64,000 bases of DNA from positions 1 to 64,000 of the forward strand of contig JAUZRR010000017.1 of the NCBI GenBank assembly GCA_030950285.1, in the 5' to 3' direction. The notes beneath the pieces were generated by a model that saw only the letters and a list, made by a program, of their open reading frames with translations, was not told the origin of the DNA and did not search any database. How positions within the stretch are numbered: position 1 is the stretch's first letter; each line of letters opens with the position of its first letter. Positions 7,425-61,924 of the stretch are shown piece after piece. This stretch comes from Planctomycetota bacterium (GTDB lineage: Bacteria; Planctomycetota; Phycisphaerae; Phycisphaerales; UBA1924). The position numbers and the translations under genes were made by a program.

Positions 7425-8354
7425 TCAACGCTTGAAATACTCCGGCAGGCTCTTGCCCTTGTAGGTGAAGCTCCGCTTGCCAAAGCCGGCCGCCCGCAGC
7501 AGGTCGAGGTACGCCGAGTCATCGCCGCTGAAACCGTCGGCACCTTCCAGGTAGGCCTCGACGACGCCGTCGGCCCCGACCCACCTGGCGCTCCCGTCGC
7601 ACATCGAGGCGTTGACGCCGTCCTTGCCGTGGTTGTTCCAGCGGTCGGGGTAGTTGTTCACGCCGTCGGTCCGTCCGAACCCCAGGCTGTCGCCCGGCGG
7701 CTGCACGTCGTCGTTGTCGTTGTCGATGATGATGATCGTCCGGTCGGGAAACCGCACGCTGCGCTGGGTTTTGAGCACGCCGTCGGGATAGTCGTTGAGG
7801 ATGTCGATCCCGCCGCCGGGGTCGTAGTTCCATCCGAGCTGCCCGCCGATGGTCCCGCGATCGCGGCCGTAGATCACGGTGCCGTCGGGGTACTTCCCGT
7901 CGGCAAACCACGCGAAGGTCTCGTAGCTGTGCCCGCCTTCGTCGTCGTCGCGGTCTTTGGCTGCGATGAACGTATCAATGAGAAAGTCTCGCCCATAGAG
8001 CAACGGCACATCACCCAGCACCGGGTGGTTGCTCAGCATCTCGTTGGAACGGATGATGTTGCGGGTCGCCTGGCAGATCGCCACGTCGTAGCTGCTGATG
8101 TAGTCGGGGAACAGCCACCCGACGTTGTCCTCGAACGAAAAGATTGCGGGCAGAAAGACCTCGCGCGTGGTCTCGTTGCTGTAGAGCTGGCAGGCCTGCC
8201 CGAGCTGCCGCGTGTTCGAAAGGCACGCGCTGCGACGGGCCGCGGCCCTGGCCTTGCCAAGCGCCGGCAGCAGGATGCCGATGAGCAACGCGATAATCGC
8301 GATGACCACCAACAGCTCGATCAACGTGAACGCTCTGAAACACTTTCCAGACAT
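7425..8354 (-). CDS. Prepilin-type N-terminal cleavage protein (pseudopilin-like)
   Basis: 309 residues. A type IV prepilin leader and helix are clear: [18 protein letters not shown] at 9-26, with Glu at position +5 of the predicted mature protein. The residue before the cleavage site is Ala8, not the usual Gly. The remainder is a large soluble domain ending in an H-x10-DG motif ([13 protein letters not shown]), similar to the H-x9-DG end of the very abundant planctomycete DUF1559-type pseudopilins. It is probably exported through a type II secretion or pilus system not present in the window. Confidence 0.85.
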
Positions 8355-58561: not shown

Positions 58562-59302
58562 CTACGAGACCAGCCCTGTCGCGCCGAACACCGGCCCCAT
58601 CGTCGGCAGCTCGGCCCCGAGCACATGCCGCAGGTACGAGCCCAGCAGTCGGCCCGCACGCGCGATCGTCTCGGACTCGAGCGCCTCGGGCAAAGCGCAC
58701 TCCGCCGCCAGGTGGCCGCACGCCGCCACAGTCTCCGGCCGCACCCGCCAGCCGTCCGGACGGGCCGCCGCGGCATCACCGACCAGAAACACCCCCTCAC
58801 GAGGCAAAAAGCAGACCGGAACACCCGGCCCGATCGCCCCTTTCGGCATCGCCGGCGTGTACCCGGTCTCGGCGAGCACCGCCCACTGCCCTCGCAGCAA
58901 CGCCTCTTCCGGGCGCTCGGCGAGCAGGTCGAACAGCCCCGTCATTTGCCCAAACAACCCGGGGTGCGGATCGGCGTCAGTCACCGCGTGGTGGATCAGG
59001 TCGATCAGGTACGACCCGACATAGAACGCCCGCAGCGACCGCCGAACCCCGGGATAACTCTCGCGGAGATCCCACGCGGTGACCGTCGCCAGAGAGCCGT
59101 TGGACCGGACAATCGCGACCACCTCGCCGAGGGTCAGCAACTCGACCCCCCCCGAGAACGGCGACTTCTCGCGCTTTGAGCCCTTGGCGATGCCCCGGAT
59201 AATCCCGTGGTCGCGCGAGAACAGCGACACCGTCTGGCTGGTCTCGGACCAGTCCCAATGCCGAATGCAGATCGCGTCGTCTCGGATGGTGATGGTGCCC
59301 AC
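58562..59302 (-). CDS. recO: DNA repair protein RecO
   Basis: 246 residues from a GTG start. The N-terminal OB fold (ICIRHWDWSETSQTVSLFSRDHG) precedes the helical domain (ALRGQWAVLAETGYTP-like, with LLRGQWAVLAETGYTPAM). The zinc-ribbon Cys residues of many RecO proteins are mostly missing (only one in VCFLPREG). It helps RecA loading with RecF and RecR. Confidence 0.87.
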   Translation of the reverse strand: MGTITIRDDAICIRHWDWSETSQTVSLFSRDHGIIRGIAKGSKREKSPFSGGVELLTLGEVVAIVRSNGSLATVTAWDLRESYPGVRRSLRAFYVGSYLIDLIHHAVTDADPHPGLFGQMTGLFDLLAERPEEALLRGQWAVLAETGYTPAMPKGAIGPGVPVCFLPREGVFLVGDAAAARPDGWRVRPETVAACGHLAAECALPEALESETIARAGRLLGSYLRHVLGAELPTMGPVFGATGLVS

Positions 59303-59594
59303 AGCCAAGAGCCTAGGTTCTGTCTGATGGCTCCTCCGAACCAGTGAAGCCGGCGCCTCGACCGCCCGAGGGGCATCCCAAAACACATCCGTACGAGCGA
59401 GACGCCCCCCCCCACAAAGGCTTTCATCCAGATGCCACGATTGCCGAGCCTCCAGCAGCAAAAATCTTATGGATTCCCTGGATTAACTCTTGCAACCTCG
59501 GGGGGGGGGGCAGATAAAGTAGAGTGTGTTGTGGAATCAAGAATCCGCGGCACCAACAGAGGACACACCTCACCTGAGGTAGGAAGGGGCAGTC
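59303..59594. other. Intergenic region between divergent recO and an exported-protein gene
   Basis: 292 bases. A run of ten or more G lies at 59502-59510, close to CCTCGG. The sequence before the downstream gene holds TAAAGTAGAGTGTGTTGTGG and a GGTAGGAAGGGG Shine-Dalgarno-like region. No gene is seen; promoters for both genes probably lie here. Confidence 0.5.
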
Positions 59595-60386
59595 ATGAAG
59601 AAAACGGCAAGGAACGGCATCGTTGTTTTTTCGATATTGGTGGCCGTATCGAGTGCGCAGGCGTGGACGGGGCTTGTTGCCGCGATGCATGTGCGGGCTG
59701 CGGTGCTGTCGGCAACACAGGAGGAAGACCCGCCGCCCGAGGTGATCCAGCACGGCTTGACCATGCTTGCCGAGGGGGAACGGTTCTCAGAGTATGATCT
59801 CTGGGCGATTGCAGTGACGATCGAATCGCCGGAATACACCGTCATCGCCAACACCGAAGGCTGGCTCTTCCAGGGCGGCGATATGGTCAAAATCGGCAAA
59901 GACCTCGGCCAATACTGCGAAGTCGGCGAGCCGGTCGGCGAAGGTGTCTACTGGAACCAATCCGAGTTTGCGGTGTATCTGGTCAACGCCGAGGACTCCA
60001 ACGCGCTCATCAAAGTGGCTCCCTTCGGCCTGCTCTCCATCGGCCTGACGACGGACATGCGGACCAAAGTCGGGCCGGGGAGTGGAGGTGACGGAGCAAT
60101 CGTGTGCCGGGACGGGTATTCGGCGTGCTGCATCCCAAGTGTTACTCCCGCCATCCGCAAGTGCCTCAGCGACACAAACGGTGACTTCAGTGCATGCGAG
60201 GGTGGTGGCTTGGGAGCAAGCAGTTGCGACGTTGGCGATCGCTATGTGAAGTGCCGCGATGAATACTTTGCATGTTGCGATGAAACCTCGAATTCACCGA
60301 CATACCTCTGCCTGCCGAACAACTCGTCCGGCGCCCATTGCGAGGGTGGCGGGCAGGGTGCAGAGTCCTGCGATCTGCTGCAATAG
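59595..60386 (+). CDS. Exported protein with duplicated cysteine-rich C-terminal motif
   Basis: 263 residues. Signal peptide VFSILVAVSSAQAWT. A central beta-rich domain at about 50-165 has no recognised family. The last 90 residues hold two related repeats with about seven Cys each: DGYSACC...CLS...FSACEGGGLGASSCD and DEYFACC...YLCLP...HCEGGGQGAESCD. They suggest two disulphide-bonded units outside the cytoplasm. GGAAGGGG lies 9 bases before the ATG. The family was not recognised. Confidence 0.75.
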   Translation: MKKTARNGIVVFSILVAVSSAQAWTGLVAAMHVRAAVLSATQEEDPPPEVIQHGLTMLAEGERFSEYDLWAIAVTIESPEYTVIANTEGWLFQGGDMVKIGKDLGQYCEVGEPVGEGVYWNQSEFAVYLVNAEDSNALIKVAPFGLLSIGLTTDMRTKVGPGSGGDGAIVCRDGYSACCIPSVTPAIRKCLSDTNGDFSACEGGGLGASSCDVGDRYVKCRDEYFACCDETSNSPTYLCLPNNSSGAHCEGGGQGAESCDLLQ

Positions 60387-60426
60387 CAACATAACAGTAA
60401 CGCTTTGGGCTGGGTGAGTCCGTTTT

Positions 60427-61824
60427 TCAAGACACTCTCTTCTGTAAGAGACAGCGCCGTCGGTGCGGAAGGACATGCGAGTAATCTCCGAGCGATCGTG
60501 ACACTTTCTCTGCCGAAACATCATCCATCAAGCGGAGCCCGGGTCGAGGCAAGTCCATCACAGGAACGCGCAGCCGCCGGGGTGTTCGCTGCGGGTGCAG
60601 GTACTTTCGGTTCTTGCGGAGATTGTTCCAGAAAGAGTCGATACCCCGTGATGCGGGGATGTCAGGCAGCATCATCGTGACTTCTCCGGTGACGGTGTTG
60701 CGGGTTTCAAAGCTCCAGGGTCCTGCATCGGGGAGGCGTGGCACGAAGCCGTTGTAGAGACGGATGGTGTAGAGCGGCTCGGTTTCACCGGTGCGTCTGA
60801 CGGTCAGGGTGTGCTGTTCGAGGTTCTCCATGCTGATGCTGTCGAAGGCCAGCCACTCCCACAAACTGCCGCCGTTGTCGGCTTGCTTCATCGTGACCGG
60901 CCACCCGGGATAGCACGCCGCATCGGGCGCAGTGGGATCGACCCAGCGCGGCCAGCTCTCGCAGGTGATGGTGCGGTCGGCGCGGCTCAGGCGGACGATG
61001 CCGTAGCCGGGGGCTTTGTCGTAGAGCGCAGACGGCTCTTGCCCGGACTTGATCGGATTGGCCGCGGCCAGCATGGTGAGTTTGTTCCCGAACCCGTCCG
61101 TGAAGTCGCCGGTGTAGCGCGGTGCGCCCGGTTCGCGGCGGGCGGGTTCTTCAGCGGGGGAGGTAAAGCAGGCGCCCGCGTCGCGCAGTCGTCAACGCCG
61201 TAGCGCATGAGTGTCGAGAGGTGCTGGTCTCCTGCCAGGTGGATCGCAAACCCGCTGCGGAGGGCTTGGACTGCGCGGTCTCGCCCCGGGCGAGGCCAGC
61301 CGTTGGTGTCGCCGTCGGCTGCGGGTTGATCGTCAGGCGGGTACTGGCCCGGCACGAGGTTGGTGAGCCCCGGCACGACGCCGTCGCTCTTGGCTGATGC
61401 AGGCAGCGTGTGCGCCCCGGCAAAGGGCGATTGCGAGAGCGCGACTTTCATCCACACACCGCCCGACCAGTCGCCAGCCCAGTCGCGGAGAAACTCCTCT
61501 TGCTCCGCGCCGAGCAACGGGATCGCCGAATCGTCCCGGTGCGTCCGCGCATCAAACCCGTCAGCCTGAGGCCAGCCGTTGCGGTACTTGCCTTCGGGCA
61601 CCGCGACACTCGGCGATTCCTTGAACATCCGATCCGCAAAGACCGCAAACGACACGCCCGCATCGATAAAGCTGGTCGTGTAGGTGGTGTCCCAGTCGGG
61701 GAGGACGAATTGGCCCGGAAGTCGCGCCCGATCCAGACGCGGTCGGGGGTGGTGTCGAAGTCGAAGCCGGTCTGGCCGGTGGCTGTCGGCATCGGCACAA
61801 GACCGAGCAGGCACAGCGCAGCAT
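60427..61824 (-). pseudogene. Decayed PhoD-type alkaline phosphatase gene
   Basis: Three frames together give one protein: an N-terminal piece with a signal-like stretch and DRVWIGRDFRAN (61,710-61,800), a middle piece with FVLPDWDTTYTTSFIDAGVS and the GDQHL metal motif (about 61,170-61,715), and a C-terminal piece CFTSPAEE, YTGDFTDGFGNK and the EPLYTIRLYNG end (to about 60,560). Frames change near 61,713 and again near 61,160. The family usually has 700-900 residues; most of the region between the first two pieces is missing. It is therefore a pseudogene with an internal deletion. No internal stop is needed to reach this view. Confidence 0.75.
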
Positions 61825-61924
61825 GGTGGTCCCTTTCGCGAGGGAGGATGAGGACCGTTTGTACCAGCACGGGGTGGTCGTGACAACCGCAGCCGACAGC
61901 CGGCGACGCGGGATACGCTCGTGG

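What the first reader, a model, noticed from the sequence alone, without database searches (positions are those of the whole stretch)
59595..60386. Exported protein with a duplicated CC...CEGGG cysteine motif
The last 90 residues are two copies of a Cys-rich unit (ACC...C...CEGGGxGAxSCD). I do not recognise the motif. The even number of Cys and the export signal suggest disulphide-linked modules, perhaps for binding or toxin-like functions.
Basis: partly seen in the sequence, partly recalled or inferred. Interest (0 to 1): 0.5.

Follow-up and report, generated by a model that had tools for sequence, protein, structure and literature searches.

The report
Exported six-cysteine repeat protein, perhaps phase-variable
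This uncultured planctomycete exports a protein ending in two copies of an uncatalogued six-cysteine mini-domain, and a run of eleven Gs sitting where its promoter spacer should be suggests that the gene may flip on and off.

Summary
Window 59595-60386 (+) encodes a 263-aa exported protein ending in two C-x6-CC-x10-C-x9/10-C-x2-GGxG-x3-C units. The unit is a real, uncatalogued mini-domain: 11 genes in 9 of 163 held genomes of this Phycisphaerales family, six invariant cysteines, AlphaFold pLDDT 93, no fold match. Profile libraries and PDB sequences gave nothing credible for the window protein. Only this genome's two paralogues have two units. A profile made only from Bacteroidota sequences with the blocks in swapped order recognises all 11 genes, the window one weakly piece by piece.

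An 11-G run lies between TTGCAA and GATAAA, 17 bp apart, ahead of the gene. The paralogue has the same, one relative has an 11-G run and another (GT)12. The paralogues share 57 codons without a synonymous change inside otherwise diverged genes, which points to recombination. I propose a secreted binding protein with phase-variable transcription and recombining paralogues. Switching and function are untested; a toxin role has no support.

The parts
59490..59495 (+). -35-like hexamer TTGCAA (4 of 6 to TTGACA)
   Evidence: Part of a 13-of-13 identical block CTCTTGCAACCTC before the tract in the paralogue. The formal promoter scan does not list it.
59500..59510 (+). Run of 11 G inside the putative 17-bp promoter spacer (59496-59512); candidate phase-variable tract
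   Evidence: One of only two G/C runs of 11 or more in 361,294 sampled bases of this genome (a sample that includes both loci); the other is in the same place before the paralogue.
59513..59518 (+). -10-like hexamer GATAAA (4 of 6 to TATAAT)
   Evidence: inference, no transcript data.
59595..60386 (+). Gene of the finding: 263-aa exported protein
   Evidence: paralogue and nine further relatives.
59595..59663 (+). Signal peptide, residues 1-23 (AQA-W)
   Evidence: Read from the sequence; the paralogue has the same AQAW site. No predictor was run.
59730..60044 (+). Middle domain, residues about 46-150: two helices, then a small beta domain, shared by the family
   Evidence: Alignments A2 and A9; AlphaFold; weak likeness of residues 86-152 to PDB 5ix9, Z 4.8.
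59826..60020 (+). Stretch (codons 78-142) without any synonymous difference from the paralogue: signature of gene conversion or recombination
   Evidence: 57 consecutive same-residue codons (Met and Trp left out) unchanged; 0 of 100,000 permutations reach this.
60096..60236 (+). Cys unit 1, residues 168-214 (C171 to C211)
   Evidence: AlphaFold of this unit alone pLDDT 93.0.
60243..60383 (+). Cys unit 2, residues 217-263 (C220 to C259)

Best explanation
An exported recognition or binding protein of a Phycisphaerales bacterium. It has a Sec signal, a family-specific helix-plus-beta domain, and a C-terminal pair of six-cysteine beta mini-domains that most likely fold through three disulphides each after export. 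Shown: the architecture, the family, invariance of the six cysteines, the lineage-specific duplication, relatives in Bacteroidota with the two sub-blocks in the opposite order, G11 or GT tracts before 4 of 11 genes, and a homogenised block between the paralogues. Inferred: slippage in the tract changes the spacing between the -35 and -10 elements and so switches transcription; recombination through the middle domain lets the two paralogues exchange their Cys modules; and the protein works outside the cytoplasm by binding a partner through those modules.
For: Domain: 11 genes, 9 of 163 genomes; pLDDT 93.0; Cys-fixed shuffle controls. Bacteroidota link. Tract; expected 0.02 tracts in the upstream windows (2.09 kb), seen 4 (Poisson P 7.9e-9; 1.5e-6 if the two paralogues count once). 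The block from 13 bases before the tract to 7 after it agrees with the paralogue at 29 of 31 bases, its flanks at 103 of 179. In relative G480, TTGACG and TACAAT flank (GT)12, and a second copy of the same promoter with (GT)63 precedes a 27-codon remnant. Recombination. Precedent for tracts between -10 and -35 that change transcription: fetA and porA of Neisseria (PMC5320596, passages read).
Against: The formal promoter scan (which accepts only spacings of 16-18 and 9 of 12 matches) lists no promoter at the window tract or the G480 tract, and not the tract promoter of the paralogue; G407 was not scanned with it. The hexamers are weak in the window (8 of 12), G407 has no convincing -35, the paralogue's better -10 sits at spacing 19, and the G480 spacing of 25 would be off. 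Seven of 11 genes have no such tract (one of these, G483, has an interrupted C-rich spacer), and G532 has a good promoter without one. The tract thresholds were chosen after looking. No tract-length variation, transcript, secretion or binding data exist. Disulphide pairing could not be measured because model coordinates were not given.
Confidence: 0.5

Rival explanations
1. An ordinary exported protein with an uncatalogued disulphide mini-domain and no phase variation. The G11 run is a fixed promoter spacer or an inert tract inherited by both paralogues.
For: Seven of 11 genes lack a tract, and G532 has a near-consensus promoter (TTGACA, 18, GATAAT) without one. The two G11 tracts may be one inherited tract. 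The promoter scan does not call it.
Against: A G11 run and a (GT)n tract also stand before relatives in other genera, and such tracts are rare in the sampled DNA (8 elsewhere in 798,783 bases). The tract and hexamer block is kept at 29 of 31 bases while its flanks agree at 103 of 179.
Confidence: 0.35
2. A secreted toxin, bacteriocin or knottin-like peptide system in which the Cys units are the active part.
For: Small, exported, Cys-rich and duplicated. Some Bacteroidota relatives are stand-alone secreted peptides of about 85-118 aa.
Against: No family of the libraries scanned matches (Pfam 4, NCBIfam 18, PHROGs 73, PADLOC 119). The neighbours scanned are RecO, reverse-strand ORFs without a match, Methyltransf_4 and QueC; I saw no immunity, processing or dedicated export gene among them. 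The units sit behind a conserved domain of about 100 residues, not behind a leader.
Confidence: 0.08
3. A structural or cell-wall protein of the planctomycete envelope, cross-linked through its cysteines.
For: Cys-rich exported proteins build envelopes in other groups (recalled); 13 cysteines, one (C108) outside the units.
Against: Present in only 9 of 163 genomes of the family, too patchy for a main structural protein.
Confidence: 0.07

Closest known systems
Bacteroidota secreted GG-CC peptides beside DUF5128 six-bladed propellers (G643, G825, G880; also the ends of larger proteins in G551 and G682); unnamed
   Same: Same two blocks, CxxGGxG[AS]xxC and CxxGYYACC; a profile built only from seven of them recognises all 11 planctomycete genes.
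   Different: Order of the blocks is GG then CC; five of the seven are stand-alone peptides. DUF5128 lies beside them in 3 of 5 genomes; in the G551 and G682 loci I saw none by eye but did not run Pfam on the neighbours. None among the six ORFs scanned beside the window gene.
fetA and porA of Neisseria: transcriptional phase variation by a homopolymer between -35 and -10 (PMC5320596, passages read)
   Same: Homopolymer located between -35-like and -10-like hexamers of a gene for an exported protein.
   Different: Different phylum and gene family; variation and switching not shown here; weak hexamers.
NVEALA family, PF14055 (considered from memory)
   Same: Short exported Bacteroidota peptides; its link to propeller genes is recalled only.
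   Different: No profile match to the proteins scanned here.
PDB 5ix9, 'Cell surface anchoring domain' (identification as an RTX adhesin retention domain is recalled)
   Same: Weak structural likeness of model residues 86-152, Z 4.8, rmsd 3.2, 65 of 76 residues.
   Different: 5% sequence identity; Z is in the range of common arrangements; Foldseek ranks it 33rd at E 2.8.

Membership tests
Six-Cys unit family (defined here) | Six invariant cysteines with C-x6-CC and C-x2-GGxG-x3-C | tested here: met
   Both window units; 13 of 13 units in alignment A3 keep the six cysteines and the GGxG glycines.
Six-Cys unit family (defined here) | Shared region before the unit | tested here: met
   Alignments A2 and A9. 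BLASTP of the whole window ORF reaches 5 of the 10 other genes at E 1e-6 or better, 3.7e-7 to 1.2e-130, over 120 to 267 residues; the other 5 link through intermediates.
Bacteroidota GG-CC peptides | Same GG and CC blocks recognised by a profile without planctomycete sequences | tested here: met
   full-sequence E 1.5e-4 for the window ORF among 10,381 ORFs, summed over three weak pieces (best piece i-E 0.25, bias 30.4); 0 of 300 Cys-fixed shuffles for each of 11 genes.
Bacteroidota GG-CC peptides | GG block before CC block in one unit | tested here: not met
   Single-unit planctomycete proteins are CC then GG. The window's tandem holds GG1-CC2 inside it, but each unit is CC-GG.
NVEALA (PF14055) | Match to the Pfam profile | tested here: not met
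   No match for the window protein at E up to 10, nor for the Bacteroidota proteins at E up to 1.
Transcriptional phase-variable loci (fetA/porA type) | Simple repeat tract between -35 and -10 elements | tested here: inconclusive
   Position fits: TTGCAA-17-GATAAA around G11. Promoter scan does not confirm the hexamers.
Transcriptional phase-variable loci (fetA/porA type) | Tract length varies between cells or strains | not testable with these tools
   One assembly per species; no reads.
Transcriptional phase-variable loci (fetA/porA type) | Expression switches with tract length | not testable with these tools
   Needs an experiment.
Known small disulphide folds (knottin, defensin and others) | Structural match to a solved fold | tested here: inconclusive
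   Foldseek best E 7.5; VIA-align saw only 14 chains, none with Z of 2 or more. Such tools are weak on 48 residues.
LapA/MpAFP-type retention domain (5ix9) | Fold match of the middle domain | tested here: inconclusive
   Z 4.8 over 65 residues; Foldseek rank 33, E 2.8, probability 0.18.

The most novel reading that the evidence does not exclude
A contingency locus in Planctomycetota. A small family of secreted, disulphide-built recognition proteins is switched by promoter-spacer repeats (G11 or (GT)n) and reshuffled by recombination between paralogues through the middle domain. Its duplicated units are the kind of intermediate expected when a mini-domain is circularly permuted by duplication, linking the CC-GG form of Planctomycetota with the GG-CC form of Bacteroidota.
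Probability: 0.4. Interest if true: 0.72.

Novelty: new variant of a known kind. Interest (0 to 1): 0.52.

Why it matters
If the tract does switch the gene, this would be a promoter-spacer contingency locus in a phylum for which my two literature searches listed no title on one, in uncultured environmental bacteria rather than pathogens. It would also give a handle on which surface or secreted proteins of Planctomycetota face selection by phages, predators or neighbours. The six-Cys unit is a confidently modelled domain that the libraries searched do not hold, with an apparent circular permutation between two phyla, and the duplicated form offers a candidate intermediate.

Tried and rejected
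Family libraries gave nothing: Pfam at E up to 10 (all 11 members at E up to 1, one stray LSDAT_euk hit at 0.28), NCBIfam (18: window protein, its tail and the G044 relative; 61: Bacteroidota proteins), PHROGs and PADLOC for the window protein. PDB by sequence: nothing credible for the whole protein or the unit (20, 31). The middle-domain profile 'hit' 29 entries, TAL-effector repeat proteins by name or (TOD4, TOD6) taken for such, at E down to 5e-17, but no stretch passed on its own. It is one short helical segment summed over many repeats, and I reject it as an artefact.

Fold searches of the whole model and of the unit (83, 84, 85) gave no confident match. Viral contigs: no relatives. Plasmids: none. 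Rfam: none over 59300-60700. NVEALA was suspected from memory and not supported; in 118 Bacteroidota genomes 1 had a match and none passed the cut-off. Weak matches that were partial, had stops or lay in another frame were not counted. Some I inspected (for example L075, which overlaps gyrB-like sequence, and L042, L046, L079); others I did not. L148 (G890), a 32-aa ORF with a GG-like block, scored E 0.0016 and was left uncounted.

A pattern search with a variable gap could not be run. An alignment of the tandem with single units came out badly and was dropped in favour of single units. Literature, listings only: NVEALA 0 papers; cysteine-rich, Planctomycetes, secreted and disulfide 6 papers, none on this by title; DUF5128 or 6-bladed beta-propeller 68 papers, 15 listed, none of those holding DUF5128. 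GYYACC gave 7 papers whose titles concern archaeal ammonia oxidisers and a pig coronavirus; I take these for nucleotide primer strings, unread. Phase variation with Planctomycetes 14 papers, 12 listed, none on planctomycete phase variation by title. Planctomycetota with phase-variable 1 paper, unrelated by title.

Full report
What is there. Window 59595-60386 (+) is a 263-aa ORF. Residues 1-23 look like a Sec signal peptide ending AQA-W (by eye). Residues about 46-150 form a domain of two helices and a small beta domain in the AlphaFold model (whole-protein pLDDT 77.7, pTM 0.73, 11 sequences). Residues 168-214 and 217-263 are the two Cys units. They align with a score of 98; no shuffle reached that, 0 of 5000 free and 0 of 5000 with the cysteines fixed. 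At the DNA level the units agree at 82 of 150 aligned columns, so the duplication is old.

The family. The window lies in a 3.10-Mb, 62-contig genome. It has a second copy, 69% identical, also with two units, on another contig. With unit profiles I searched 150 and then all 163 held genomes of the same family. In one search, 13 of 163 matched at E 0.01 or better. Nine of these carry 11 genes that I accept: two in this genome, two in G480, and one each in G044, G407, G483, G507, G511, G525 and G532. The other four (G002, G499, G544, G549) matched at E 2e-4 to 0.01. G544 overlaps gyrB-like sequence in another frame (by eye); the other three I did not inspect, and none is counted. Named records for three of the genomes (G407, G480, G532, recognised by identical proteins) are titled Phycisphaerales or Phycisphaeraceae bacterium. 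In 392 genomes drawn across the phylum 31 matched at E 0.1 or better, and only G000, G044 and G407 had a clear, nearly full-length match. All nine genes outside this genome have one unit. All 13 units keep six cysteines, an Ala before the CC pair and the three Gly of the GGxG block. Units 1 of the two paralogues agree at 64%, units 2 at 49%, and units within a protein at 43% and 39%, which suggests that the duplication came before the paralogues separated.

The unit as a domain. One unit modelled alone from 13 sequences gives pLDDT 93.0 with four short strands. Foldseek found nothing in PDB (best E 7.5) or among viral models (best E 4.8), and VIA-align had only 14 candidates, none with Z of 2 or more. 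Tools of this kind are weak for 48 residues, so a known fold is not excluded. The profile libraries gave no match.

Relatives in another phylum. The genome-collection scan found, besides four planctomycete loci, a Flavobacteriales MAG protein that matched over the CC part only. It turned out to have a CNSGGPGATSC block just before the CC block. A search of 296 genomes of that phylum with its tail gave 30 genomes at E 0.1 or better, of which I accept, besides the query's own genome G551, only G643 and G682 after reading the ORFs. Reading around the G643 hit showed a second gene there. A profile that included two window-genome rows then found G825 (two genes) and G880 among 92 genomes of the family of G643; others (247 genomes; 140 genomes) added no further gene that I accept. 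These are short secreted peptides (G643, G825, G880) or tails of larger proteins (G551, G682), all with the order GG then CC. A profile from these seven sequences alone, with no planctomycete row, scored all 11 planctomycete genes with full-sequence E 2e-7 to 3e-3 among 10,381 ORFs. The window ORF's E of 1.5e-4 is summed over three weak pieces (best piece i-E 0.25, large composition bias), and the ORF set comes from loci fetched by these searches, so this alone is not conclusive. The stronger control is that for each of the 11 genes 0 of 300 shuffles with fixed cysteines reached the real score. The hits are counted as two pieces in the single-unit proteins and three in the two-unit ones; in the two alignments I viewed, one single-unit gene (L074) shows the pieces in the opposite order, and the window protein shows CC1, then a joined GG1-CC2 piece in Bacteroidota order, then GG2. 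The window protein thus contains both orders, which is what the permutation-by-duplication model predicts for an intermediate (PMC3320104, passages read). I do not claim that it is the historical intermediate. In G643, G825 and G880 the peptides stand beside DUF5128 six-bladed propeller genes; in the G551 and G682 loci I saw none by eye.

The promoter tract. Scanning 250 bp upstream of the 11 genes showed G11 at -95 here (and C9 at -190), G11 at -93 before the paralogue, G11 at -71 in G407, and (GT)12 at -102 in G480 copy C2. Here the tract lies between TTGCAA and GATAAA with a 17-bp spacer. The paralogue has CTCTTGCAACCTC-G11-C-x-GATA. From 13 bases before the tract to 7 after it the two agree at 29 of 31 bases, in the flanks at 103 of 179. 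In G480, TTGACG and TACAAT flank the repeat at 25 bp, and 3' of that gene a second copy of the same promoter with (GT)63 (spacing 127) precedes a 27-codon signal-peptide-like remnant. G483 has an interrupted C-rich spacer between TTGTCC and TACATT, which I did not count. In G511 only 91 bp upstream are held. In 361,294 bases of G000, which include both loci, the only G/C runs of 11 or more are these two. Over 798,783 bases of nine genomes, which include the family loci, tracts of at least 10 G/C or at least six dinucleotides number 8 besides the four upstream tracts and the (GT)63 copy. That rate predicts 0.02 in the 2.09 kb of upstream windows (200 bp each) against 4 seen; P is 7.9e-9, or 1.5e-6 with the paralogues counted once. 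The thresholds were set after seeing the tracts, and the sampled stretches are not a random draw (many start at contig ends). Against: seven genes lack such a tract, G532 has a good promoter without one, and the consensus scanner lists no tract promoter at any of the three loci scanned. Tracts of this kind between -10 and -35 alter transcription of fetA and porA in Neisseria (PMC5320596, passages read).

Recombination between the paralogues. Codons 1-40 differ at 41 of 120 bases and codons 161-213 at 64 of 159, and NG86 dS is saturated in the units. Codons 81-140 differ at only 6 of 180 bases, none in a codon that keeps its residue. The longest run of same-residue codons without a synonymous change is 57, codons 78-142; in 100,000 permutations the longest was 35. 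Protein selection alone does not keep synonymous sites identical, so a recent gene conversion or exchange is the simplest reading. It left the Cys units different, so exchange through the middle domain could swap modules; that last step is inference.

Context. Neighbours of the window gene are RecO (reverse strand), reverse-strand ORFs without a Pfam match, then Methyltransf_4 (TrmB type) and QueC. The paralogue and the G480 C2 gene both lie just downstream of a SurE gene on the same strand, which suggests that the surE side is an older site for the family. A comparison of ORFs of 90 or more codons around the 11 genes (three loci are short contigs, one is cut near a contig end) showed shared neighbours between G480-C3, G507 and G525, between G044 and G407, and between the paralogue and G480-C2, but none shared with the window locus.

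Judgement. The toxin idea has no support. The most interesting addition is the likely phase-variable promoter, with recombining paralogues. Position and rarity speak for it, but neither length variation nor expression has been shown.

Noticed in passing
L170 (G480:C2:359000-375000), about 7840-8134, reverse strand: A second copy of the (GT)n promoter, here with (GT)63, before a 27-codon signal-peptide-like ORF that stops early: apparently a decayed tandem duplicate of the family gene.
   Followed up: partly
window 60427-61886, reverse strand: Two overlapping ORFs (60427-61074 and 60987-61886) read like parts of one PhoD-like phosphatase, possibly frameshifted; by eye and recall only, Pfam gave no match to either.
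   Followed up: partly
L127 6996-8968 (G643) and L146 957-2974 (G825): Pairs of short secreted Cys peptides flank or precede a DUF5128 six-bladed propeller lipoprotein gene; a recurring, unnamed arrangement in Bacteroidota.
   Followed up: partly
L199 position 9635 (G480:C3): A run of 12 G after a GT-rich stretch, the longest G/C run in the sampled G480 DNA, not near the family genes; may mark another tract-controlled gene.
   Followed up: no
window 59405-59413: A run of nine C inside the 5' part of the long reverse-strand recO ORF, before the RecO_N match begins (residue 59), so possibly in recO's leader; 86 bases from the G11 tract. Role unknown.
   Followed up: no
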